In this document: positions 3,536-54,733 of the stretch, one piece after another
Position numbering within the stretch: the stretch's first letter is position 1
Layout of the letters: each line of letters starts with the position of its first letter
Source of the DNA: Ctenosaura bakeri
Taxonomy: Eukaryota > Chordata > Lepidosauria > Squamata > Iguanidae
Direction of reading: 5' to 3'
NCBI GenBank assembly: GCA_948474755.1
Contig: CAOLHI010000747.1
Span: 62,001 to 126,000, forward strand
Length of the DNA stretch: 64,000 nucleotides
Program-made: the position numbers and the translations under genes
Notes under the pieces: model-generated
The model's database searches: none
Told to the model about the DNA's origin: nothing
What the model saw: only the letters and a program-made list of their open reading frames with translations

Positions 3536-4040
3536 TTACCATTCAAATCCATCAGAATTCCCTATTTCGTTTTTCACATAGTCCACAAATGGTTGCCAGC
3601 TTTTAAGGAATTTGCTGTTCCTTTTCTCTTCTAATATATGGGTAAATTTATCCATTTCAGCCAATTCTGATAGTTTCTCTAGACATTCTTCCACAGTTGG
3701 GATGGTGGTTTTTTTCCAGGTTCTAGCGTAAACAATTCTTGCCACTACTATCATATGCAAAAGTAGCCATTTCTGTCTTTTTTCCAGGTCACATCCTAAA
3801 CTGAAAATTCCTAGAGGAAAAACTCAGGTTTTCAAACAATACTTGATTTTAGGATTTTTTGCATTGTGGATCTTACCCTAACCCAATATTTTTGGGCTCT
3901 ATCACACCTCCACCACTGATGGATGAAGGTACCAACTTCGCTATCACATTTCCAATAGATATTATTGGCGTCCTTAAACATCTTTGCTATTCTGGCAGGA
4001 GGTAAATACCACCTATACAGAATTTCTAATACATTCTCTT
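3536..4040 (-). pseudogene. L1 ORF2 C-terminal fragment
   Basis: On the minus strand this encodes the end of an L1 ORF2 protein. It has the late Cys-His motif (WKCDSEVGTFIHQWWRC, about 3890-3965), then a hydrophobic ARIV segment and the terminal helical region, ending at the stop at 3536-3538. The same order and spacing occur in the full-length L1 at 43900-44341. The copy is 5'-truncated near 4040 and broken between the Cys-His motif and the terminal open stretch (3536-3760). It is a dead retrotransposon remnant and older than the copy at 37.9 kb, judging by its divergence. Confidence 0.8.
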
Positions 4041-4345
4041 GGAGAATGTAGGATCACATATGACTGATACTGTGTTTCCTGGCCTTTTCAAAGAGTGGTA
4101 TTTTTTAAATTTCCCCCAAAACAGTACCTGCCGCTTCCAAACACTTTCAAGGCAAACCTGCATAAAGTGCATTACAGTAGTTGTGAAGATCCAGGAGCAG
4201 GGGGCAATAAAATTTAGATGAAAAAGTGATATTTTTCTTAATTTCCCGCAAAACAGTAATTTTCTGGGGAAAGTGGTGGGAAAGGGATCGTAGAAGATCT
4301 GCTTTTAGACCAATAAACAGCATATTTTAGACAGTTCCCCACTCT

Positions 4346-4464
4346 CCCATGGCAACCCACTTGGCCTTGAGTACATCACAGGCTCTCAGCCCTAGAAAAA
4401 CCCATGATAGGACCATCTTAGGATTGCTGTAATTCAGAAATGGCTTAAAGACCCACAACAACCC
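4346..4464 (+). mobile_element. Sauria-type SINE, 3' part
   Basis: The body and tail match the SINEs at 19.7 and 25.6 kb: 'gcaacccacttgg', 'ctctcagccctagaaaa', 'ttgctgtaattcagaaatgg', then a short acaacaac-type tail. The tRNA-like promoter head is missing, so this copy is 5'-truncated. Confidence 0.7.
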
Positions 4465-5047
4465 CAAATCATATCTATTATATCTAAAAGTTATGGAACT
4501 GGAAGATTTTAATGTAAGCCTCTCTACAGTGTCAGAGGATTGCAACCTATGGTCCCAGGCTGCTTTTTCTCAGGTTTTTAAATGGGAAAGAGTGCTTTTT
4601 AACACTATGGAAGATGAGAGAAGACAACATTGGCCGAGACCCTGCATTGGGAAGTGTGTGTTTCTCTGTAGTTATACCTTGCACTACTATGTTTCTAAAT
4701 CCCACTTTGTAAGCCCCTTAGAGCAAGGGATCAGTGGGAACATATCCACTTATTTTCCTTTAGCTGGATACACTGCAACAGGTACCAGCAAAGACTTGTG
4801 GAAGCCAGCAGTTATTTTCTTTCTTCTACCACTGCTGACAGCTTCTTCTGTTTTTATTGTTTTTTCCTGCTTTCTTAAGAAATCAAAGAGGTTTCTTACA
4901 ATTCATCTGGTCCATAGCTTCACATGTTCCTTAGCCATTCAAAACCTTCTAGCTTTACCTGTAACAAAAAAATGTAAAAAGTAAAACATTATATGCAACT
5001 CAGAAACATGCTCTGAATTATGTGTACCTTTTAACATTCCAGACTTG
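4465..5047. other. Gene-free stretch with a 163-codon chance frame
   Basis: An open frame runs 4493-4984 on the plus strand. Its product shows one hydrophobic stretch (about residues 107-128) but no recognised family, no plausible promoter and no splice context. It is best treated as a chance frame. Confidence 0.4.
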
Positions 5048-5249
5048 GGCCATTTCCATACCACACTGTTATAGTGCTATTATTCCACTTTCAACATCCT
5101 ATGGAATCCTGGGGTTTGCAGTTGAGGGGAGGAGCATTTAGAATTCTCAGCCAGAGAGCTCTTGGGCCTCAGGAAACCACAAACCCCAGAATTTCACAGG
5201 ATGTTGAAAGTGGAATGATAGCACTGTAACAGTGTAGTGTGGAAATGGC
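5048..5249 (+). mobile_element. Long-palindrome MITE, family P (Harbinger-like)
   Basis: The two arms are inverted copies. The left arm starts GGCCATTTCCATACCACAC and the right arm ends GTGTAGTGTGGAAATGGC. Complementarity continues inward through 'ccactttcaacatcct' / 'aggatgttgaaagtgg' and 'ggggtttg' / 'caaacccc', leaving a loop of about 70 bases. There is no coding capacity. A shorter family member at 34496-34584 has a clear TTA target duplication, as in PIF/Harbinger elements. Target duplication at this older copy is not clear. Confidence 0.7.
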
Positions 5250-5764
5250 TATGATAATTTGATGTTAAACTGCATTATACATAATGTATTTTATGTTCCT
5301 AAAGTAAAAAAGTGAAGGGTCCTAGTATAATGTTTCCGCCAATTTTTCTGAAAATTTCTGTTCTTTCCAAACACACACACACACACTGTAGTTTCCTCCC
5401 ATGGCTTCAACATTTCTAGAAATGTGGAACCCTCTGTACCTCATCAACGAATGCAACCTACGTAGACTTTGGAGTGCCATTGCCTGAAGTCTCATTGGTC
5501 AACTTTTTAGAAAACACACCCCTTTCATTCACCACCACCCCTTGATTGAATGAGAACTTCTCTGGCTGAACGATCCACCCTTAGCCCTTTCCACCCTGAT
5601 GTCTGACTCCTAATCAATTCACTGACTGCTATATATTCACTCAGTCCTCCACCCCTGAAACTGTAAGAAACTGACAGCTAAGTTTAAGAACTCAAGAGTG
5701 GAATCATGTAACCCTCCAGATGTTGTGAGACAGAACCCTTTCCATTCCTAATAATGTACTTTGC

Positions 5765-30806: not shown

Positions 30807-31434
30807 TTATTAGCATTATCTATTTGCAGCATCAAATATTTAGAGGAAAGCTTCAGGAAATCTGAAGGCTGAGGCTCAGCATCTCAGTTAGAGCTCTCTT
30901 CAAATGCCGTTTTGATACCATTAAAGAAGCCAACTATTTCTAAACAATGAATGTGTTCTTTTGAGCCTCTGCTAGAACTCTGAAGCTGGGGAAATGACTG
31001 TTTTGACTACAGCTCTTTGAATACCTTTGCCAGCATCACCGTTGGTCACACTGTCTTGGAGGTCCTAACAATGCAGGCTATGAGATTATGGGAATTATAG
31101 TCCACAACAGAATTTTTCTAAGTTCTGAGCCACATGTAGTGATGTTCCACAAATTACAAAGAGATCAACACCTTTACACTTTATGCAGATGAAAAGGTCA
31201 AAGTTCAGTCATTTCTTCTACATGTGTACTTCAAATTACGGGGCATCTTCTACCATTGCTTTTTGTTTATGAAATGACAATGTTTTATTTTTAAATGTTT
31301 TTAAATGTTTTATTTTGGATTTGGATATGTGATGACATCATAAGGGGAGTGGACCACTTTAGAAATATCAGTTGATCTCGCAAGACTAACAAGTTCTTTA
31401 CCTTATATGCATGCACAAACAATCACACATTCCT
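30802..31434. other. Gene-free stretch with a MITE-like palindrome
   Basis: Around 31005-31130 there is an imperfect palindrome ('tgactacagctctttgaat' ... 'gggaattatagtccacaac' and 'tttttctaagttctgagc') like the MITE at 56.06 kb. Nothing else was recognised. Confidence 0.4.
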
Positions 31435-32373
31435 CTGCATGACCTTGACCTCATTAAGGCCTTTGACAAAGTTCCACATGACATTCTTGCAAAGAAGCTA
31501 ATAAAATGTGGGCTGGACAGGGCTACCGTTAGTTGGATTTGTAATTGGTTGACCAACCACACCCAAAAGGTGATCACCAATGGATGCTTTTCATCCTGGA
31601 GAGAAGTGACTAGTGGGGTGCCACAAGGTTCTGTCCTGGGCCCAGTGCTGTTCAATATTTTTATCAATGACTTGGATGAAGGAATAGAGGGCATGCTCAT
31701 CAAATTTGCAGATGACACCAAATTGGGAGGGGTTGCTAATACGCCAGAGGACAGGATCAAAATTCAAAATGACCTTGACAGATTGGAGAGCTGGGCCCAA
31801 GCTAACAAAATGAAATTCAATAGAGATAAATGTAAGGTCCTGCACTTAGGTAGAAAAAATGGAATGCACAAATATAGGATGAGGGAAGCGAGGCTGGATA
31901 GCAGTACATGTGAAAAGGATCTAGGAATCTTGGTAGACCACAAGCTGAACATGAGTCAGCAGTGTGATGCGGCAGCCAAGAAAGCCAACGTGATTCTTGG
32001 TTGCATCAATAGGAGTATGGTGTCTAGATCGAGGGAGGTGATGGTACCACTCTATTCTGCATTGGTTAGGCCCCATTTGGAATACTGTGTCCAGTTCTGG
32101 GCACCATTCAAGAAGGATGTCGACAAGCTGGAGCATGTTCAGAGGCGGGTGACCAAAATAGTGAAGGGTCTGGAAGCCATGCCCTATGAAGAACGGCTTA
32201 GGGAGCTGGGTATGTTTAGTCTGCAGAAGAGAAGGTTAAGAGGGGACATGATAGCCATGTTTAAATCTTTGAAGGGATGTCATGTTGAGGAGGGAGCAGG
32301 CTTGTTCTCTACCGCTCCAGAGATTAGGACAAGGAGCAATGGATTCAAGCTGTGGGAAAAGAGATTCACTTGA
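31411..32373 (+). pseudogene. CR1 reverse transcriptase, 320-codon open remnant
   Basis: The frame is open for 320 codons, the first eight or so likely from flanking DNA. It starts within the reverse-transcriptase core: the catalytic-site aspartate in [10 protein letters not shown] (residues 14-23), then [11 protein letters not shown] (68-78), then FADDTKL (99-105, nucleotides 31705-31725), which holds the catalytic aspartate pair. The thumb and C-terminal regions follow ([33 protein letters not shown]). Compared with the sister copy at 29 kb, one base is missing at about 32366, which ends the frame some 50 codons early at TGA 32371-32373. There is no start, no endonuclease and no promoter, so it cannot act as an element. 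Confidence 0.88.
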
Positions 32374-39628: not shown

Positions 39629-40167
39629 TATCAATTTGCACTACTGGAAGAGATTAGGAACATAAAATTGGAAATAAGACAAGAAATGAAAGACCTTAGG
39701 AGTGAAATGAAGCAAGATTTCAAAACAGAATTAAAAGGTATTAAAATCGCATTGGGAGGACTACAAGAAGACTTAAAGATTACCCAAAATCGGGTGGAAA
39801 TACTTGAAATTAAAATGAAAGAGACTGAAGAGACTATTGAAAATCTGAATCGACAACAAGATCGTCTATTAGACAAAAAAGCACTATCCAACCTAAAAGC
39901 GAAAGAGAATTATATTAAAACAAGAGGTTTAGCTGAATGGAAAGAGGAGAACCAATATGAAAGGTTGATCCCACCGTTAGCAGAATATCTAAACATATCC
40001 TGCAAAAAAATGGAATGGGAAATCGACAAAATGTACAGGATTGAATCCAGAATTGCTAAAGAAAGGAGATTACCATGTGATATTATGATACAACTGGTAA
40101 GGAAGAAAACCAGAGAGGAAATAATACAAAAAAGCTTAGAGGCTGACTTCATAATTGACAAAACGAA

Positions 40168-40183
40168 AGGATGGATGGATGGA

Positions 40184-40225
<42 letters not shown>

Positions 40226-40226
40226 T
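40168..40226 (+). repeat. GATG/GATA/GACA microsatellite inside L1 ORF1
   Basis: (GATG)n, (GATA)n and (GACA)n in series replace or interrupt the ORF1 C-terminal domain. It expanded after insertion or was carried by the source copy. Confidence 0.9.
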
Positions 40227-40597
40227 ACCTCCAAGAATTCTGAGGAACTGAAATGAATATAAATTTTAACTACCTTTTGAAACATCAAAATGTACTGTAT
40301 GGATGGGGGGAACTAGAAGGTTTAAGTTTTCGCCTCCGAGAGAAATAATTCAAAATTGATACTGTTCAAGAAGCGAAAATATTCATGAAAAGGTAAGGGA
40401 AAGAACAATGGAGATGCAAACCGCGAGAAGAAGAAGAAGATAAAAGAAGAACGCAACCTGAGGCCAGTCATAAAAGTACTACAGAATGGGAGAATACTGA
40501 AGAGGAAGAAGCAACAGGGAATGAAACAGATAATGATGATGGTGAAGATTCAGAAGAAGAAAAGAATTAATTAACAACTGAATGGCATTCTAAAGGA

Positions 40598-43500
40598 ATG
40601 GACTTAAAAATTTTTTCTTGGAATGAAAAAGGAATTTTAACTCCAACAAAAAGGAAAAAAATGTTTCATTATATAGAAAAGAAAAAGCTTGATGTGATCT
40701 GTCTACAAGAAATTTGAGTACAATCATCAAAAACCCATTTGGTTTGAAATAAAAAAATAGGCAATGAATATGAGTCGGTCCCAAAAACAAAAAAAAGAGA
40801 TATAGTATTATATGTGAACCCGGGAATAAACTCTAAAGAAATTCTCAACGATGAAGCATGACGGTATATTGCAGTAGAAATCAATTGGCAAAATCAAAAA
40901 ATATTGGTAATCGGTATATATGGCCCACATAAAAAAACAAGAGAATTTTTATAAAGAATTAAACAAAGAAATTACAGACTTAAGCTATCATAAATTAATC
41001 ATTCTGGCAGATTGGAATGGGGTGATAAATCCAAGTCTAGATAGGAAATCAAGGAAAAACATAAAAGAAAAACAAGGAAAACTGTCTAACTCATTTAATG
41101 CTATGATGGAGAATTTTGAATTAATAGACATATGAACATATCTATATGGACTAAGTAGAGATTATACATTTTATTCTGATCCCCACACGTCATTATCATG
41201 AATTGATATGTTTCTAGTCTCTAACTCTATAATACAGATGGTTAATAAAAAAGTGATTTTGCCCCGGTACCTTTCAGATCATAGTCCAATATTGATGATC
41301 CTAAAAAAAGGACAGAAGGAATATTTAAATGGAGATTTATAAAAATTACTATTGGAGGATAAATTAGTAAATAAAATCAGAAATCAGATCAAAGAATGTT
41401 TTGAGGAAAATTTTAACAAATATATTAATCTTGCAACGGTATGGGATGCTGGAAAAGCAGTTATTAGAGGATATCTTATTCAATATAATTCAGAGATCAA
41501 CAGGAAAAATGAGAGAGTATCCAGGAATTAAACGAAGTGATGAGGAAGAAGGAGGGAAAATTAAATGAAGATCCAATGAATAAAGAAATACTAAAAGAAA
41601 TAAAGATATTACAAAAACAACTAGAGACGCAATTAGAAACGGAACTTAATGAAAAATTGACATACGTTAGACAACATCACTTCGAATGGGCAAATAAGGC
41701 AGGAAAATGGTTGGCACTTAGATTGAAAAAGAAAAAAGAGAAAACATTGATAATTAAATTAAAAAGCAGAGAGATGATATATACAGATTCCCAGAAGATA
41801 AAAAAAAATAATCACAAATTATTTTGCAATGTTATATAAGAAACAAGAGCTTAAAGATGGAATGATAGAAACATATATTTCTCATCAAAATTTAGCAATT
41901 TTATCAGAAGAACAGCATGAGAGTTTAAATAAGCCAATCACCTTGGTAGAAGTGATGGAAGCAATCCACAAAGCGAAGAAAGGGAAAACTCCAGGACCAG
42001 ATGGTTACACAGCAGCATTTTACAAAACATTTCATCAGGAAGTGGCACCCATACTACAAAATATAATGAACGACGCACTACAAGGGATCACCCCAAATTC
42101 ATGGAAAGAGGCGGACATAATATTGATCCATAAAGAGGGAAGAGACCCACTCAATGTTAAAAATTATAGACCAATTTCATTATTGAACACAGATTATAAA
42201 CTTTTCATTGTGGTATTAGCCAATAGATTAAAGAAAATTCTCAAAGACTTGATATCTGAAGAACAAGCTGGATTTCTTCTGGGGAGACAGATAAAAGACA
42301 ACATAAGGAATATAATTAACATTTTAGAACTTTGTGAGAATCATCCCCAGAGAAAACTGATAGCTCTTTTTTTAGATATAGAGAAGGCCTTTGATACAGT
42401 AAATTGGGAATTCCTAATTAGAATTTGACAGAAAATGAAGATGGACTCAAATTTTATAAACTGGATAAAGACTATCTACTCCACACAATATGCGCAAATA
42501 ATAGTAAATGGCCAAAAATCTGATAAATTTAAAATACAAAGAGGAACACATTAGGGATGCCCTTTATCTCAACTTTTGTTCTTATTGGTAATAGAAGTAT
42601 TGATAATAAATATTAAAAATGCCAAAAAATCAAAGGAGTTAACTTACAAGGTAATAAATATAAAATACGGGTATTCGCTGACGATTTGGTGATTACCTTG
42701 GAAAACGCAAGTGAAAGTTTAAATGTGTTGAAAGATGTCATTAGAGATTTTGGGAAGCACTTAGGTCTAAAAATTAATAATGAGAAAATGATAGTGCTGA
42801 CAAAAAATATAAAAGAAGAGGAGAGAAACCAAATATCACAGATCACAGGCTATTCAATTGCCAAAAAAGTCAGATACCTAGGAATTATGATTACAAATAA
42901 AATCTCTGAGCTTTTTAAAAACAACTATGAAAAAACATGGAAAACTATTTTGAAAGATTTAAAGAACTGGAGTAATTTAAAATTATCATGGTTGGGGAAA
43001 ATAGCCACAGTCAAAATGTCAATACTTCCAAAGATTCTTTATCTATTTCAAACTATCCCTATTATTCAACGTGACAAGGTTATTAAGGTGTGGCAAAAAG
43101 AAATTTCTAAATTTATATGGGATGGAAGCCAAGGGTAAAAATGAAAATATTAGAAGATGCCAAAGAAAGAGGGGAATTAGCTTTACCAAATCTGATGTTG
43201 TATTATCATGCATGTTGTCTGAATTGGGTGCAAGATTGCATCAAGCTAGAAAATGTTAAATTATTAAATTTAGAAGGAGATGGACTTTGGTTAGGGTGGC
43301 ACTACTATCTTTGGTATAATAAAGGGAAAAGCAATAAAGAGTTTGTCACTACTTAAGAAAAGCATTATTAAAGATATGGAGGAAATATGCTACAAGAGCC
43401 TATATGAAAACCTCACAATGGGTCTCCCTATGAGGCTTTTTATAAAAAAGAAAATATATTATTTGGAAAATGGATAAAATATGAAGACATGGTGGAGAGA

Positions 43501-44341
43501 CAAAAAGGACAAATTAAAATCAAATCTCAACAAGAGATAAATGAATCTGGTATCAAATATCATTGGCTCTTATACAGACAACTCAGAGAATAATTAAGAA
43601 GTGACATTAGACTCAACGGATATCAAATAAAAGATGAAGAACTAACTGCAATATTTAGGGAAACCTAAATCTGTCTTCTCTATCTACAAGGTTTTATTTA
43701 GATGGTCCGCAGAAGAAGAAATTATTAAACCATCTATGATAAAATGGGCCCAAAATTTCTCCCACTCAGTTCTGATGGAACAGTGGGAGAAAATTTGGCT
43801 AAAAAGAATAAAATATACTGCTTGCCAAGATATAAAAGAAAATTTATATAACATGTATCTGAGATGGTACTTAACACTGGAAAAATTGGCGAAAATATCT
43901 AATAAATGCTTTAATAAATGCTGGAAATGTGGCTCAGAAATAGGAACCTTTTACCATTCATGGTGGTCGTGTAAAATAGTAAAAGAATATTGGAAGTCTA
44001 TTCATATACAAATAGAAAAAATGTTAGGTATAAGGTTTAAAATGTCACCAGAAATATATAGGCTATCAATAATGGAAGAGGAATTGGATAAAAAAGCTGG
44101 AAAACAATTATTTTATATGGCAGCAGCCGCAAGAATAGTTGTAGCACAAAAATGGAAATTGGGAAAGATGCCATCAGTAGAAGAATGGGAATTAAAATTG
44201 TACAATATGATCCAAATGGATAGGTTAACATATATAATAAGAGGGGAGAGCAAAGAAAAATGTATAAAACAATGGGACAATGTAATAAATTATTATAAGA
44301 ATTCATGGAAGGTTGTTAAGATGGTGAATATAGATTTTTGA
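40598..44341 (+). pseudogene. L1 ORF2 (endonuclease-reverse transcriptase), broken
   Basis: ATG 40598 opens MDLKIFSWNEKG, the first motif of the APE-type endonuclease. LDVICLQEI follows at about 40690-40716 with the catalytic glutamate, then IGIYGPH at about 40912-40932. The reverse-transcriptase part includes GKTPGPDGYTAAFYK (about 41983-42027), NYRPISLLNTDYK (about 42162-42200), LDIEKAFDTVNW (about 42373-42408), GCPLSQLLF (about 42555) and FADDLVITL (42674-42700). A Cys-His motif (CWKCGSEIGTFYHSWWSC) is at about 43920-43973, and the stop is TGA 44339-44341. The span is close to the usual 1,250 codons. Stops (for example in the endonuclease and before GCPLS) and frameshifts near 41340, 42430 and 43140-43730 make it non-functional. 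Confidence 0.92.
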
Positions 44342-46522: not shown

Positions 46523-47892
46523 TGTTCTTTCTGTTCTCATATTTTTCTTGTGAATTTCTGGCACTACCTGCAGCTTCTTTAAGCCAACCATAGAGTGTGG
46601 GTTTTTCTCTGTCACAGGTGTTTCCAGTACAGGCTGGAGTAAATGTCCTACATCTGTATCCATTGCCTTGCTTCCTCTCACTACACTTTTGGCCAGTCCC
46701 ACTGATCACATTTGGTGTGAAGGTGTGACCTTTACCACAGATGTTTTCCACTGACTTTCATCCCCTTGTTACATTTCTGGTCAAGAGAGCCAACATTTCT
46801 TCCCCATCCATTCTTTTGTTTTAGAGTTATAGGGCACTTGATATAGTCCTTCAGCACTATCACTATAAAACAACAATAAAAACTGTGCAGGATAGAGAAG
46901 ATGGACACTGAAAGAGGAGTGGAAAGGTGTTGAGTTCATGATGGGGATGCAAGGAAATTATGCCCACAACACATCTTAACCAGAAATAAAAAGAAATGTG
47001 CAGATTGCGAGTGCTAAACTTTGCTATAAGCAGTAACAAACAAGGGCCAATACCCTGACATAGTTAGGATGTGAGGGCAGAAACTACCATTGTAAAACAT
47101 TAAATCCAGAAACAGAAACTGTGATGTGTACTGGGACTAATGGGCTCTCTGGAAGAGCATTCTGTTTCCCACATGAACACACAAACACAGAGAGCCTCTT
47201 CCACTCACTCATTTGCACACACCCAAGCACAAAGCACTGTACCTCCTGACTCAGCATCCCCCAATCACCCCCTAGCTGTCTCCCCATTCTCTATCATTCC
47301 CACACATCCTTGAAAGCAAAGGAGAGACTCCATTTAAAATATGGATTTGTGGGACAAACTGGACATCACAGCAGAAGGATTATTATCAACATGAAAACTT
47401 CATTTGGATTTCACCCAAGATCTGGACTTCGCCATGACATCACTCTGTCCAGGATATTGATGCAAAGACAGCTTTGGTCCCAAACAAACAGTGGCAGTCG
47501 AAAGGCCTTTCTGAAGGCCAGCCTTACAGTTAGGCAGAATGAGTCTCAAGTGGTAGATGAACGGTTTGGCTACTGCAGTGCCTTGGCTATTCTCTAGTCA
47601 TTCCTTTCTGATGAAGGACAGAGTTGTGCCGCATGGTCCTCTATCCTATTTCCCTCAACCTTCCTAGATGCTATTCGATTGCCAGTATCCAGCTGACAAT
47701 CCAGTCAGCTTCTGAACATAGAATTGTGGTGGGGAATCATCTTGTTCTTTTCTCAGGCAGCAGAATTCCCATTGCTATTTTATTTACCTCAGTCCTCCCA
47801 CAGACCTTGACTTCTGATGGTCCTCACAGCCATAGTAGAGGATGGAGATTGTGTGCCTTGTTTTTTTTTTCCTGGTGCTATGAATATTGTAT
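45346..47892. other. Gene-free stretch with a CT/CA microsatellite
   Basis: No gene recognised. A (CT)n-(CA)n microsatellite lies at 46472-46521 and a C run at 45723-45735. Open frames such as 47310-47597 (plus) and 47624-47926 (plus) show no family features; the latter runs into the DIRS left end. Confidence 0.4.
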
Positions 47893-48056
47893 TCTTCTTC
47901 GTGGTCTCTGTGCCTTCATACACTAGGAGCTTTAGCGCCTGCGCGGTAGCGTTCGGAAACTTCTAGAGCTTGTTCGCTTGCGGGAACCCCTCCCCCACGC
48001 CGGTACTGTGCATGCTCCTCCCGCCGAGCAACGGTCTCTCCTCAGTTCTTTCTCGT
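47893..48056 (+). repeat. DIRS left inverted terminal repeat
   Basis: From 'ttcttcttcgtggtctctgtg' through 'ctaggagctttagcgcctg' to 'ctcctcagttctttctcgtcc'. It is the inverted copy of 53740-53905, with one missing G near 47983 and one CpG-type change (tgtgcatg against tgcgcatg near 48009). It lacks the roughly 28-base outer extension present at the right end. Confidence 0.92.
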
Positions 48057-48222
48057 CCGCCGCCGCGTACGGAAGGTTCTTTAGTTTGTTCCTCTCACGT
48101 CGTGCTTGGCTTGCTGTTTTTTCACGGTTTTACGGACTTTCGGACTGTCTTTGACCTCTCTTTCGGACTCCCCCTTCGGTTTTCGTCTTTTTGGATTTCG
48201 GACTTTGGCGTTTCTTCGTCTT

Positions 48223-50673
48223 ATGTCCGCGCTCTTTAAGAAGTGCGTGTCCTGCGGCCGCAAGGTTGCCCTCAACGACGGCCATAAGGAGTGTCTCTTC
48301 TGTTTGGGCGAGTCCCACAACATCCGGACTTGCCCAATTTGCAGGGATTTTACTCCCCAAACTCTTCGCAACCGCTCCGCGAGACTCAAATCTTATTGTT
48401 GGGAACAGTCTCTGCGGGCGATAGACGAGACCTCCACTTCCAAGATGGCCGACAAGAAGACGACCACGCCATCGACGGTATCGGCGGCTGCCGTTCCGTC
48501 CACCTCGTCGGTATCGGGCTCGGTACCGGCGAAACGCCGATCTCGGCGTTACCGAGGATCCCGAAGCTGTCGGCGGCTGCCAAGTCAGCGAAAGGATCCT
48601 CGACGGCGAGGAAGGCTGAGGCTCCCCTTACGGAGACGCCTGCAAAAAAGCGCCCTGCTCCGGACGGAGGCAAGGGCAAGGAGAAGGAGAAGAAGAAGAA
48701 GAAGAAGGAAAAGAAGCGCTCCCCGGCTGGGGACGCTCAACCTCTTACTCCTCCTCCTACTCAGCAGCCTTCCAAAGGGCGAGGCGAGTCCGTCGACCTC
48801 TCGGAGGATGAGATCGAGGATGTTCCCCAACAGCACCCGGACTCGCCTGTGGCAGACCCTCCAACCCTGGTGGAGGAGCGCCACCGCCCCTTAGCCGTCG
48901 CAGGTCGGCCGACCTGCAGCAGAGAGAGCCCTCTGCTTCTCCGGAGCGGCGTTCGACCTCCTTCAGGTCCCGGTCCCGCTCTTCCGAGCGTCCGGTGGCC
49001 TCGCCGCCTCCGAGGGAGACAAGAGAGGAACAACCTCGCTCGTCTGCCTCCAGATACACCTCGGCGTCCTACGTGGCCAGGTACGCGAGGGAATCTGAAT
49101 GGAGAGAGCGCCCGGCCTCCTATCGGTCGCATTCGCCATCGTACCGGGATCGGTACCATCGTGGCCCGAGTCGCTGGGAGACCTTCCGGAGGTCCCGGTC
49201 ACCTCGTCGACAGCGCGAATCGCGCTCGCCTAGAGGGGACGAGGCTCGGTACCGTCGACGCCGAAGCCGATCTCCGTCGGACCGCCGCTCCTTCAGCCGC
49301 TCTCCCTCCCCTCGATATCATAGGGCGAGGGAGCCTTCACCACGGTATCGGGCGATATCGCCACCTCCTAGGGTCACGGCAACGGCGACGCGCCCTACGG
49401 AGTCGGTGGTGACTGAGCGGGCTACGACGACGTCAGCCTGCCAGACTACCCCGGTCACCACCAAGAGGGTGAAGTCAGTGGTCAGCCATCCCAAGCGGGA
49501 CGCTGCTGCTACCACCGCCCCGGCTGCGGAGAAGCCTAGGAAGGCAACACCTGCGGCGACTACGAAGGAGCCGGAGAGCGAGCGGCGAGAGGACTCACCG
49601 AGCTCGGAGTCGTACGACTCGAGTGCGGAGTCTGAGGTGTCTGAGGCGGCCTCCCAGGAGTCTCCTCCGTTGGGATTCGGGGACCCGATCCCAGATTCTG
49701 CTCCAGAGGACGTCCACCAGTTCTCTGCGATGCTGCTCCGCATGGCCACTACCCTCGGCCTTAAGATCGCCGATGCGGAGCCGGAGGATGACGATCCAGC
49801 CTTCTCCGTTTTCGAGGAGAAGCGACCTTCCACGGCCCCGCTGCCTCTCCTGCCCCGGGTATCCAGACTGGTGAAGGCCGCCTGGGATAGACCGGCCTCG
49901 GCTCAGCCGATACCGCAGCGGTTAGAACACCTCTACAGGGTGCAGAAGGATAACGCCGGTTATCTATTTAATCACCCTGCACCGAACTCTGTGGTCGTCG
50001 AGTCCGCGCAGACGAAGGGCTCCGGCAGGCAACACACCACCCCGCCGGACAAAGAGGGCAGGAAGTTGGACGCCTACGCAAGGAGGTTCTATTCAGCTGC
50101 CTCCTTGCAGATCAGGCTGTCCAACACTCAGGCTTGCCTCGCGGCATACCTGAAGAAAGTGCTCGATCGCCTGCAACCAGCGATGGAAGCGGTACCGGAG
50201 GACATCCGCCAAGCCTCCTCCGTGATCTTCAATGAGGCAATCTCCATTGCTCGGCACCAGATGGCCTCCTCCCGGCACGCAGTGGAGATCGCCTCCCGGG
50301 TCATGGCGGGATCGTCGGCCTCCGCCGCCATGCTTGGCTGCGACCGGCCGACATCCAGGAGGACACCAGAAGGAGGATTGAAGATCTCCCCTTCGACGGT
50401 GAAGGCCTATTCAATTCGTCCACAGACGAAGCTTTGGACAATCTCGTCAAGGCGAGACTGACCGCAAAAAAGATCGGGCTGCAGCCGGCCACGCAGGCCC
50501 GCAGGGCCTCCACCTTCCGCCCATCCTGGCGACGATCTTCCACCTCGTCGTTCCAGCGTTCGGCCCAGTCTGGACAGTCGAGACCGTCCTCCGGCTCATC
50601 GGCCAGACGCACGATTAGGCGGCGCCCGCCTTCGTCGAAGAAGTCCTCCTCCGAGACAAAGTCTCGGTTTTGA
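48223..50673 (+). pseudogene. DIRS gag-like protein gene, frameshifted
   Basis: ATG 48223 opens MSALFKKCVSCGRKVALNDG with a Cys-rich zinc-binding-like N-terminus (CVSCGRK...CLFCLGE...CPICRD; about 48240-48345). The reading moves to another frame near 48540 (Lys/Glu-rich and acidic stretch to about 48850). It moves again around 48950 into an Arg/Ser-rich block (RSRSPRRQRESRSPRGDEA, about 49194-49250) and a conserved helical Gag region (about 49720-50330). A last frame ends at stop 50671-50673. At least three single-base-type frameshifts are needed to explain this. In DIRS elements the product is thought to act as the structural, RNA-packaging protein. Confidence 0.85.
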
Positions 50674-50739
50674 CGTGCCTGGCAGGACCCACCAATACCC
50701 ACTCTTCAGCCTACCATCAGCGCTCGGAGACCGACCGAC

Positions 50740-52570
50740 TCTCCTTCGACACCTAGCGGAGTGGCAGTATGTACTACGGACTCTTGGGTGCTTTCCATCG
50801 TCCGTCTTGGCTACGCCATCGAGTTTCTGATTTCCTCCTCGCGGCGTTTACTACTCCACGCCGTCGAGCCGGCCCTCCTGGAAGAGATCCAATCCCTCCT
50901 CCAGAAAGGGGCGATCGAGCAGCTCCCGCAAGAGGCCAAGACCACCGGCTTCTTCTCCAGGTACTTCACGGTCCGAAAGCCGACGGTACCCTCCGGCCGA
51001 TCCTAGACCTCAGAGGGGTGAACTACTACATCCGCCCCAAAAGGTTCAAGATGGTCACGATACCGTCGATCCTACCCTTCCTACATCGAGGGGACTGGTT
51101 CGCCTCCATCGATCTCCGAGACGCATACTTCCATATCGCCATTCGCCCGCAGCACAGACGGTACCTCCGCTTCGCAGTCGACGACACCTGTTACCAGTAC
51201 AAGGTGCTGCCGTTCGGACTCTCGACTGCCCCAAGGGTCTTCACCAAGTGCATGGCCCCGGTGGTATCCTACCTGCGGACGAAGGGCGCTTCCGTCTTCC
51301 CCTACCTCGACGATTGGCTGTTGGTGGCGTCCTGCAAACAGAGACTTTACCACGACGTCCACATGACGTTGTCACTCCTGACCCGCCTTGGTCTACGAGT
51401 GAATCCGAAGAAGTCCCACCTCGAGCCGGCGAGGATCTTGGACTTCATCGGGGCGACGCTCGACTCGACCTCCGCCAGGGCGTACCTACCAGAGTCTCGA
51501 GCACAAACCTTAAACCGGGCCGCCGCTCACGCTCGTAGGCCCCGACGTTATCTGCGAGAAGCGTCCAGCAGCTCTTGGGCTACATGGCTGCGACGACCGC
51601 TGTGACATATCTCGCCAGGCTGAGAGCAAGACCTCTTCAACACTGGTTCGTCCGCATATTCGACCCTGCGAGACGAACAGACACTCCGACTGCAGCTGCC
51701 GGGAGACGTCCGCTCATCCCTCCGATGGTGGCAGTCGCGACGCAATCTCATGTCAGGGATGCCTTTCCAACAGCCGACACCGAAGGTGACGGTAACGACC
51801 GACGCCTCCCTGTATGGATGGGGTGCCATGGGGGCGATCTCAGAGTCCGCGACAGATGGACCGACGACGAGACCGCTCTCCATATCAACGCGCTGGAGCT
51901 GCTCACCGTCTGGAAAGCCCTACGGGCGTTCCGCCATGCCGTGGCGGGGCGCACGGTCCTGATTCTTTACGGACAACACCACCGCCGTCTGCTACATCAA
52001 CAGACAAGGTGGGACTCATTCCACGACCCTGCTCGACATCGCGCTCGACCTGTGGGAATGGTGCATTCGCCTGCACACGCATCCCGTGGCGGTTCACCTG
52101 GCCGGGCAGGAGAACACCACGGCAGACGCCCTCAGCAGGGACACCTCATCCCATCACGAATGGTCTTCTCCGGAGAGGCGTTCAGACTGATTGGGGACCG
52201 CGGGGGCCCCATCGATCGACCTTTCGCGCCCAGGGAAAACGCGAAGTGTCGCCGATTTGTTCCAGAGCGGGCCACGATCGTGCCTCCATGGGGGACGCTT
52301 TCCAGTTTCCGTGGCCCGGGGGAACTCCTCTACGCCCCCGCCGTTCCCGCTGCTCGGCCGGACGATATCAAAACCCTCGCCGACCGAGCCGACGCGACCC
52401 CGGAGCCCCGACGGCCGAGGCAACATTGGTTCCCCCCCCTGCTACAAGCCGCGCGAGACGACCTGCTCCGGTTGCCACCGACACCGGACCTGCTCTCCCA
52501 CTCCGGCGGCCGAGTCCTCCATCCGGACCTGCCACGCCTGGCCCTCCATGCCTGGAGGATATCGCACTAA
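50740..52570 (+). pseudogene. DIRS reverse transcriptase / RNase H gene, frameshifted
   Basis: It begins in the frame containing ALLEEIQSLLQKGAIEQLP (about 50875-50931) and shifts near 50985. The reverse transcriptase follows with LRPILDLRGVN, SIDLRDAYFHI (catalytic Asp at 51111), LPFGLSTAPRVFTK and YLDD (51303-51314). RNase H-like blocks then alternate between frames: VTVTTDASLYGWGA (about 51790), INALELLTVWKALRAF (about 51885) and the late TTADALSRDTSSHHEWS (about 52119-52169). The last part (about 52190-52570, with RQHWFPPLLQAARDD) lies where DIRS elements carry a Dam-methyltransferase-like domain; I cannot confirm that domain here. It ends at stop 52568-52570, overlapping the recombinase frame. 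Confidence 0.9.
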
Positions 52571-52599
52571 AGACCCGTGCTCGGACCGTCCTCGTCGCG

Positions 52600-53558
52600 G
52601 CCAGGAAGGAATCCACCCCTCCAACTATCAATACAAGTGGGGACGTTCCACCTTCGCTAAAGAGAGGAGTAGCCGGTATCGCCCGCGGGGGTCCGACCGC
52701 CTGATTCCTCCTGCACCTCCGGCAACAGGGCCTGGCGTTTCCATCCCTGAAGGGGATCTCTCCCCGATCGTGGCATACCAACCGCCACGATCTGCTGCCT
52801 CGGCCTTCTTCAGGAACGATACCGTTAAGCGGTTCCTGAAAGGACTTCACACCACCCGCCGGTATCGCCGCCGTACCGCCGTGGTCCCTCTCGCGGGGCT
52901 CTCGCAGCTGACGAAGCCGCCCTTCGAGCCAATGGCGACCTCGGATGACAGGCTCCTGACAATGAAAACTGCCTTCCTGGAGCGGTGACCTCAGCGAGGC
53001 GAGCGGGTGAGATCACAGCCCTTTGTTCCGATGAGCCCTTCACGGTCTTCCACAGGGACAAGGTGGTCCTGAGACCTGACATCTCGTTCCTGCCAAGGTG
53101 GTGTCCAGTTTCCATCTCAACCAGGACATCATCCTGCCTGCCTTCTTCCCGAACCCGACGACACCGTTGGAGCGGCCCCCCACTCCCGGAGTGCGTCGGG
53201 CATTGGCTTTCTACAAGGACAGGACTGCTTCCTTCCGACAGACGCCGCATCTCTTTGTTTGCTATGGGCGACGTCGGAGGGGCCTAAAGTGTCCACCCAG
53301 CGCTTCTCCAAGTGGGTGGTGAGGACTATTCAAATGGCGTATGAGCTCGCGAGGAAGCCTCCGCCAGTCCTGCTTCGAGCCCACTCCACCAGAGCTGTGG
53401 CTACTTCTGCGGCCCTCCTGCGAGGAGTTGACCTGCATGAACTCTGCCGTGTGGCGACCTGGTCCCAACCATCGACCTTCGTGCGCCACTACAGGCTCGA
53501 CTGCCGGTCGCGCAGAGATGCCCGGTTTGGACGTGAGGTGTTGGCTTCCGTGCTGTAG
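52600..53558 (+). pseudogene. DIRS tyrosine recombinase gene, frameshifted
   Basis: The N-terminal region contains FFRNDTVKRFLKGLH (about 52809-52853) and reads in one frame to about 52975. The catalytic domain follows over three frames. TSARRAGEI holds the first catalytic Arg (about 52997-53002). Then come FHLNQDIILPAFFPNP (about 53109-53156) and the box-II H-x-x-R in RAHSTRAVATS (His at 53382-53384). The nucleophile is Tyr in TFVRHYRLD (53490-53492). Stop is at 53556-53558. All four signature residues are present although the frame is broken near 52975, 53100 and 53265. The exact 5' end is unknown because an overlapping open frame runs from 52191. Confidence 0.9.
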
Positions 53559-53596
53559 GACCTGACCCGCCGTCCGACCGGTAAGCTACACAGTCT

Positions 53597-53690
53597 CCTA
53601 GTGTATGAAGGCACAGAGACCACGAGAAGAAGAACAGGTTGCTTACCTGTAACTGTGGTTCTTCGAGTGGTCATCTGTGCCATCATACAC
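53597..53690 (+). repeat. DIRS internal complementary region
   Basis: The first part (53597 to about 53630) is the inverted copy of the left outer end (47900-47929). The second part (about 53631-53690) is the inverted copy of the right outer end (53873-53933). Read on the minus strand it runs right end then left end, exactly the junction a circularised element would have. In the DIRS model this region serves as template to complete the ends and form the circle. Confidence 0.93.
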
Positions 53691-53737
53691 ACCCGCCCTT
53701 CCTCCCCTCTTTCTCAGGTCCCTGTAGGTTCTACGGC

Positions 53738-53933
53738 GGACGACAGAACTGAGGAGAGACCGTTGCTCGGCGGGAGGAGCATGCGCAGTACCGGCGTGGG
53801 GGAGGGGTTCCCGCCAAGCGAACAAGCTCTAGAAGTTTCCGAACGCTACCGCGCAGGCGCTAAAGCTCCTAGTGTATGATGGCACAGATGACCACTCGAA
53901 GAACCACAGTTACAGGTAAGCAACCTGTTCTTT
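53738..53933 (-). repeat. DIRS right inverted terminal repeat with outer extension
   Basis: 53740-53905 is the inverted copy of the left repeat. Beyond it, about 28 bases (to 'acaggtaagcaacctgttctt' near 53933) occur only at this end and in the internal complementary region. The same one-sided extension is known from DIRS1. Confidence 0.92.
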
Positions 53934-54733
53934 CGCTCTATGTGTTAGAAATAAAGATGATGCCTGCTATTCAGTCGATCTGGCCAGGCTCATCTGTTTC
54001 TGATTTAGGTTCATCTCCTCAACAGAGGCTGGATAGCATTAGCCTAAAGATTTCCATTAGACCATATGTTTTGTAAGTAGAGTGAAAGTGTCTAGTTTCT
54101 TGATGTCACTGTATGTATATCACCTGATGAAAATATCTCCAGCACAGAGCACAGCAATGACACAAATACAACAGACAGTTCACTATGTCTCCAGTAAGAG
54201 TTTTGTCTATACTACGGGGGGAGTACAACACAGAAGAAAATGTGTGTTTGACATCCTCAGCTGAAGAATGTCCTGAAAGAATGCAAGAAAGGTTCAAACA
54301 AAGGAAAGTTTGTTCTCGTTATACTAACCGTGTCAGGCTGTTTTTCTTTGGTAGAACAATTTAAGCAAACAAGGGATGAGCGAGGGTGCCAAAACTGGAT
54401 TGTTGCTGTTGTTTTAAAAAAAAAAAGTCTTAAGAACATCTTGAAAACTACTGCTACAACTGGTTTTAATATAGTGCAGTTGGTTAGCATGGAATGATGG
54501 AGGCTTTCCATCAAAGATGGTTCTCTCTGCCACAAAAATGCAGATTCCCAAATTATTTTAAGTTACGCTGTTCCTGATTCACCAACTTTAACAGCTGGAA
54601 GAAATACCACAATTGTCCTAGTTTAACTGAAAACCATGACAGCTCAGAGCCAATTCATATGTTATGCTTTGGTTAAGATTTTGCAAATACTGGAATCATT
54701 CACCATGTGCCTGACTATATGGGAGCAGCAATT

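What the first reader, a model, noticed from the sequence alone, without database searches (positions are those of the whole stretch)
47893..53933. Complete DIRS retrotransposon whose internal complementary region records both ends
The internal region at 53597-53690 is complementary to the left end and then the right end. It keeps the variants that distinguish the ends: left gtgccttcata appears as tatgaaggcac in the first half, and right gtgccatcata appears in the second half. The right end also has a one-sided extension of about 28 bases that the internal region repeats. This is the junction sequence expected from the circular intermediate of DIRS1-like elements. Complete copies with all three structures legible are uncommon in vertebrate assemblies.
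Basis: partly seen in the sequence, partly recalled or inferred. Interest (0 to 1): 0.8.

Follow-up and report, generated by a model that had tools for sequence, protein, structure and literature searches.

The report
Full-length DIRS retrotransposon copy
This is one full-length but coding-broken copy of a known kind of jumping gene (a DIRS1-like retrotransposon) that is very abundant in its host genome; its stored copy of the joined ends differs by one letter from the real left end, which may help test how such elements rebuild their ends.

Summary
[quoted passage not shown] The layout is close to AcDIRS1/AcDIRS2 of Anolis. It is not rare: 20 of 20 further copies fetched are full-length with the same termini, and exact counts of two ICR junction forms in the host genome are 3,071 and 258. 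This copy's frames are broken; its private lesions cluster at about 51.9-53.3 kb. Correction: the window's ICR lacks one base of the exact right-TT-left junction. This 'D1' form is 7.8% of the exact ICRs counted, yet 37 of 37 sampled D1-ICR copies whose left end was read have the unchanged left end. A genome-wide pattern search found three genuine D1 left ends, two of them with a D1 ICR. That argues against the ICR routinely templating the left tip, unless D1 arises afresh in each cycle, D1 copies seldom act as parents, or ends come in trans. A known kind of element; the mismatch is the interesting part.

The parts
47892..53930 (+). whole DIRS1-like element by my parse (left TT taken as element-borne, right TT 53931-53932 as host-borne)
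   Evidence: constant left TT in 20 of 20 other copies and varying right dinucleotide in 19 copies
47894..48062 (+). left inverted terminal repeat
   Evidence: 94.8% over 172 columns to the right repeat
48085..50670 (+). gag-like region, broken over several frames
   Evidence: frames; tblastn match of P0072 to 48235-48411; the corresponding frame of copy L018 has a just sub-cutoff LAP2alpha match
50973..51458 (+). reverse transcriptase domain (RVT_1), with FPYLDD seen by eye
   Evidence: E 1.1e-21, residues 73-234 of window:50757-51602
53073..53555 (+). end of tyrosine recombinase region, HSTR motif seen by eye
   Evidence: translation; no Pfam match of this piece; SAM-like integrase domain in the matching part of L018; HSTR named as a YR motif in PMC3266345
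53595..53631 (+). left half of ICR, complementary to the left end, one base short (D1 form)
53630..53690 (+). right half of ICR, complementary to the right end, 61 of 61; junction AA at 53630-53631
53734..53903 (+). right inverted terminal repeat
53904..53930 (+). right extension (rE), 27 nt, repeated only in the ICR
53931..53932 (.). target dinucleotide TT (host-borne by my parse)

Best explanation
A DIRS1-like (tyrosine recombinase) retrotransposon of an abundant and young family. It is copied through RNA by its reverse transcriptase/RNase H. The ICR pairs with both cDNA ends and so brings right end and left end together at a TT junction. The element's tyrosine recombinase exchanges that junction with a (G/C)TT-like host site, leaving no target-site duplication beyond the dinucleotide. 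Shown here: anatomy, constant termini, target dinucleotide, copy number. Inferred from published DIRS models: RNA route, pairing, joining, recombination.
For: ITRs, ICR and rE in the published arrangement; RVT_1, RT_RNaseH, a weak Dam match and a SAM-like integrase domain in another copy; same termini in 20 of 20 other full-length copies fetched; left TT constant and base before it G 14, C 5, A 1 of 20; right dinucleotide TT 14, AT 3, AC 1, GT 1 of 19; flanks share only TT in 21 of 21 copies, a set chosen for right-end likeness to the window.
Against: This copy's frames are broken. The Dam match is far below its cut-off (14.5 against 28.1 bits), and the catalytic YR domain itself was not matched by Pfam. 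The ICR of this copy is not an exact junction. No RNA, cDNA or circle was observed.
Confidence: 0.93

Rival explanations
1. About the ICR, reading 1 (splint): the ICR's left half pairs with the left end but is not copied into its outermost bases; the left tip is carried by the RNA itself, so the ICR can drift by one base (D1) without changing the ends.
For: 37 of 37 sampled D1-ICR copies have the unchanged left end; D1 ICRs number 258 but only 3 genuine D1 left ends were found by pattern, which misses left ends with C before TT; one of the three has a FULL ICR; 7 of 20 D1 but 1 of 19 FULL copies belong to a diverged lineage, as inheritance would give (Fisher p 0.044, the diagnostic sites having been picked on the same data).
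Against: D1 is not clustered on a tree of 1.5 kb of the left part (12 changes against a shuffled mean of 12.6), so inheritance in the main lineage is not shown. Two of the three D1 left ends do have a D1 ICR, as templating would give. In Dictyostelium DIRS-1 the sense transcript lacks a small part of the left repeat (PMC5633606, passages). The genome-wide count of unchanged left ends did not complete.
Confidence: 0.4
2. About the ICR, reading 2 (scar): the ICR is the template, as published, but the D1 deletion arises afresh in the ICR during replication, and D1 copies seldom act as parents; left ends come from FULL parents.
For: D1 is scattered over the tree; outside the diverged lineage D1 and FULL copies share haplotypes next to the ICR; it is the only variant shared by more than two of 40 copies in the last 430 bp or so.
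Against: Needs one and the same deletion in about 8% of copies; a diverged lineage is enriched for D1, which suggests some inheritance.
Confidence: 0.35
3. About the ICR, reading 3 (trans): D1 RNAs are completed with the FULL ICR of another RNA in the same particle.
For: FULL is the common form (3,071 against 258), so partners would be plentiful.
Against: 37 of 37 would have to be completed in trans; no direct evidence.
Confidence: 0.15
4. The element is not DIRS1-like but Ngaro- or PAT-like.
For: RT and tyrosine recombinase are shared by these groups.
Against: Terminal repeats are inverted and there is an ICR; the repeat scan shows no split direct terminal repeats.
Confidence: 0.02

Closest known systems
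AcDIRS1 and AcDIRS2 of Anolis carolinensis (Piednoel et al. 2011, PMC3266345, Table 3)
   Same: Sizes 5,938 and 5,997 bp against 6,039 here; rE 26 and 28 nt against 27; ICR halves 40-58 and 39-60 against 37-61; AcDIRS1 starts CTT, ends CAT, junction AAG, which fits the TT/AT target rule seen here.
   Different: Their sequences were not compared (not held here), so family identity is untested.
DIRS-1 of Dictyostelium discoideum
   Same: Inverted repeats, ICR complementary to both ends, right extension, gag/YR/pol.
   Different: Shorter element and longer repeats (DIRS1-2: 3,793 bp, conserved ITR 304 bp). There the sense transcript is reported to lack a small part of the left repeat; the D1 data leave open whether that applies here.
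Xenopus DIRS-like families (PMC9210276, passages)
   Same: gag with LAP2alpha domain, RT/RH/MT, YR, ITRs and ICR.
   Different: Other hosts; ITRs about 120 bp there.

Membership tests
DIRS1-like retrotransposons | inverted terminal repeats | tested here: met
DIRS1-like retrotransposons | ICR near the 3' end complementary to both termini | tested here: met
   left half one base short
DIRS1-like retrotransposons | one-sided extension (rE) complementary only to the ICR | tested here: met
   27 nt, 53904-53930
DIRS1-like retrotransposons | RT and RNase H | tested here: met
   RVT_1 in the window; RT_RNaseH in copy L018
DIRS1-like retrotransposons | methyltransferase (Dam) domain | tested here: inconclusive
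   L018: Dam E 0.029, 14.5 bits, cut-off 28.1
DIRS1-like retrotransposons | tyrosine recombinase | tested here: met
   SAM-like integrase domain above cut-off in L018; HSTR seen by eye in the window; catalytic domain itself not matched by Pfam
DIRS1-like retrotransposons | no target-site duplication beyond the short junction motif | tested here: met
   flanks share 2 nt in 21 of 21 copies of the right-end sample
DIRS1-like retrotransposons | RT groups with DIRS in a tree | not tested
   no RT tree was built
Ngaro / PAT-like | split direct repeats | tested here: not met
   repeat scan of 47600-54300
AcDIRS1 family | sequence identity at family level | not testable with these tools
   reference sequence not held

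The most novel reading that the evidence does not exclude
In this family the ICR is not the template of the outermost left end: it is a splint that holds the two ends for joining, so its sequence can differ heritably from the end it pairs with. That would change the published account in which the ICR is copied to restore the missing tip.
Probability: 0.35. Interest if true: 0.6.

Novelty: new member of a known kind. Interest (0 to 1): 0.36.

Why it matters
As an element it is ordinary: one of thousands of copies of a known kind. It matters because the family is large and has two ICR forms, so the host genome is a ready natural experiment on an open point of DIRS replication: whether the ICR is copied into the ends or only holds them together. 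The unchanged left end in 37 of 37 sampled D1-ICR copies already limits how often the ICR can rewrite the left tip, if D1 is inherited.

Tried and rejected
Tried without gain: exact end and junction patterns in viral contigs and in bacterial/archaeal genome contigs gave 0 matches. Rfam and tRNA scans of the window gave 0. Pfam on ten stop-free pieces of the window copy gave RVT_1 and two sub-cutoff, chance-like matches.

Considered and rejected: Ngaro/PAT-like (no split direct repeats). A CTT-T target read from the first sample: its query ran into the window's own right flank and favoured such copies, so right ends were reread in copies chosen by their left end. In one search two of the 20 automatic right flanks (L074, L077) were ICR matches; the counts given here follow (19 of 20 read; L074 shows no right end in its piece). 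An earlier count said 13 of 18, which is wrong. In one search the ICR of L051 was misread; it is FULL.

Rows dropped before counts: L074; two copies with neither ICR form (39 of 41 labelled); L150 (did not align), leaving 19 of 20 FULL pieces; six of 20 D1 copies, no left end at the expected distance. Those six are six of the seven diverged-lineage D1 copies; the seventh (L113/L170) has the unchanged left end.

Not answered: the genome-wide count of unchanged left ends was asked and never answered, so the share of D1 among all left ends is unknown.

Full report
What is there. The window copy runs from TT at 47892-47893 to C at 53930, followed by a TT that I take as host. Its ends are inverted repeats (172 columns, 94.8%), and the ICR at 53595-53690 matches the right end at 61 of 61 and the left end at 31 of 31 without gap. 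The variants that tell the ends apart (T/A in gtgccNtcata, G/GAG, an extra A) sit in the proper ICR half. The right extension without partner in the left end is 27 nt. These are the parts that Piednoel et al. 2011 list for DIRS1-like elements (PMC3266345; passages; section 10 with Table 3), and the sizes lie close to AcDIRS1 and AcDIRS2 of Anolis.

Coding capacity. In the window copy the frames are broken; RVT_1 is matched at 1.1e-21. Frames of another copy, L018, carry RVT_1, RT_RNaseH, a Dam match far below cut-off, a SAM-like integrase domain and, in gag, a LAP2alpha match just below cut-off (24.9 against 25 bits), the last as described for Xenopus gag (PMC9210276, passages). In five of 21 copies a stop-free frame with RT and one that runs to the YR end overlap by about 1.9 kb (stop to stop, start codons not asked). 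Against the 20 other full-length copies the window copy has 58 private substitutions and 38 private deleted bases; the median of the others is 10.5 substitutions. Alignment columns 4000-5500 (about 51.9-53.3 kb) hold 42 of the 58 substitutions and 31 of the 38 deleted bases, and 29 of the 58 are transitions. I read this as a stretch of poor sequence or local decay; the data do not decide.

The family. One search scored 40 of 684 candidates for the ICR-to-right-end piece; the 20 hits after the window itself were fetched whole and 20 of 20 are full-length (6,060-6,086 bp) with the same termini and different flanks. One search scored 40 of 1,984 candidates for the left end. One search scored 40 of 333 for the stretch just before and in the ICR, 40 of 40 at 100%. 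Exact patterns count 3,071 ICRs of the FULL form and 258 of the D1 form, with 0 for the reversed control patterns. The scored hits are picked for likeness to the window, so their identity is not a fair clock; 'young' rests on the low private divergence and carries that bias.

Boundaries and target. In the 20 copies chosen by the right end, the left end reads N-TT-CTTCTTCGTGG in 20 of 20, with N = G 14, C 5, A 1. In the 20 copies chosen by the left end, 19 right ends could be read...TGTTC followed by TT 14, AT 3, AC 1, GT 1. In the 14 left ends, 13 have TT at that place and one (L112) does not. So the left TT is nearly constant and the right dinucleotide varies with the host, as expected if a right-TT-left junction recombines with a TT-like core. 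AcDIRS1's listed CTT start and CAT end fit the same rule.

The ICR is not simply the record of the present ends. The exact junction CCTGTTC-TT-CTTCTTCGTGG is the FULL ICR; the window's ICR (D1) lacks one base of it. In the last 430 bp or so of 40 copies this is the only variant shared by more than two; a gap at 53703 is shared by two. Copies with both parts read: in the right-end sample, whose query contained the D1 ICR and so favoured it, 20 D1 and 1 FULL; in the left-end sample 3 D1, 14 FULL and 3 other; all 41 left ends unchanged. The left-end sample was itself picked by left-end likeness. Of 18 further ICRs asked from left-end hits, 17 were fetched and 15 read: 12 FULL, 3 of FULL length with a substitution, 0 D1. 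Of 20 copies taken from the D1 pattern list, 14 left ends were found and 14 of 14 are unchanged at this place. So 37 of 37 sampled D1-ICR copies keep the left end. Against this, the D1-type left-end pattern gives 9 places genome-wide; 6 are ICR variants and 3 are genuine D1 left ends, two with a D1 ICR and one with a FULL ICR. That pattern leaves out left ends with C before TT (5 of 20).

What this means. In the published model the missing terminal sequence is restored with the ICR as template (PMC5633606, passages). If that held at the left tip, D1 parents would give D1 left ends. Either the tip is not copied from the ICR (splint), or D1 arises afresh and D1 copies seldom act as parents (scar), or ends come in trans. 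For inheritance of D1: 7 of 20 D1 but 1 of 19 FULL copies carry at least 6 of 9 alleles of a diverged lineage (Fisher p 0.044; the alleles were chosen on the same data, so the p value flatters). Against it: on a tree of about 1.5 kb of the left part the state is not clustered (12 changes, shuffled mean 12.6, 136 of 300 shuffles as low; recombination could also cause this), and outside that lineage D1 and FULL copies share haplotypes. L012 (FULL) shares clade variants with the D1 copies L020, L027 and L028. With the D1 share of 7.75%, finding 0 D1 among 35 left ends not chosen by their left end (21 + 14) would have a chance of 0.06, so that count alone is weak; the pairing in 37 D1 copies and the 3 against 258 are the stronger points. 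I lean slightly to the splint reading (0.4) over the scar reading (0.35).

Known or new. The element is a new member of a known kind. I saw no paper on ICR/end mismatch as a test of templating in the listings, but I read only passages of six papers, and one section of one of these. Malicki et al. 2020 (linear single-stranded cDNA intermediates) is not held; I saw only its title in a reference list, and it is a reason not to treat the circle as settled.

Host. Not named by the tools: 1.90 Gb in 8,006 contigs. Named protein matches among the 120 listed of 531 include turtles (Chelydra, Dermochelys, Pelodiscus, Gopherus, Natator), lizards (Pogona, Hemicordylus), the newt Pleurodeles and a fish, at about 45-55% identity. 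A reptile is likely, by inference only.

Counts were held against their calls; the first attempt at this form was garbled and has been rewritten. Changes of fact: right dinucleotide 14 of 19, lesion stretch ends at about 53.3 kb, host matches widened.

Noticed in passing
window 31390-32370, + strand: Open piece with reverse transcriptase domain (RVT_1, E 1.3e-23), a LINE-like fragment.
   Followed up: partly
window 39629-44341, + strand: Second LINE-like element in pieces; RVT_1 in 41802-42425 (3.4e-17) and 42617-43135 (3e-7), broken frames.
   Followed up: partly
window 40170-40225: Adjoining GATA and AGAC tetranucleotide arrays inside the LINE-like stretch.
   Followed up: no
window about 51.9-53.3 kb: Cluster of private substitutions and small deletions in the DIRS copy (42 of 58 and 31 of 38; 29 of 58 substitutions are transitions): poor sequence or local decay.
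   Followed up: partly
L019 (G000:C469:271789-278429), left flank: The 24 bases before the left TT match the inside of the element itself (window about 52264-52287, reverse strand), so this copy seems nested in another copy; compared by eye.
   Followed up: no
L094/L093 (G000:C2674): A copy with a one-base-short (D1) left end but a FULL ICR, the reverse of the window's mismatch.
   Followed up: partly
L160, L163, L165, L166, L168, L170, L172 and L147: A diverged lineage of the same element recognised next to the ICR; for six of the seven D1 members no left end was found at the expected distance.
   Followed up: partly
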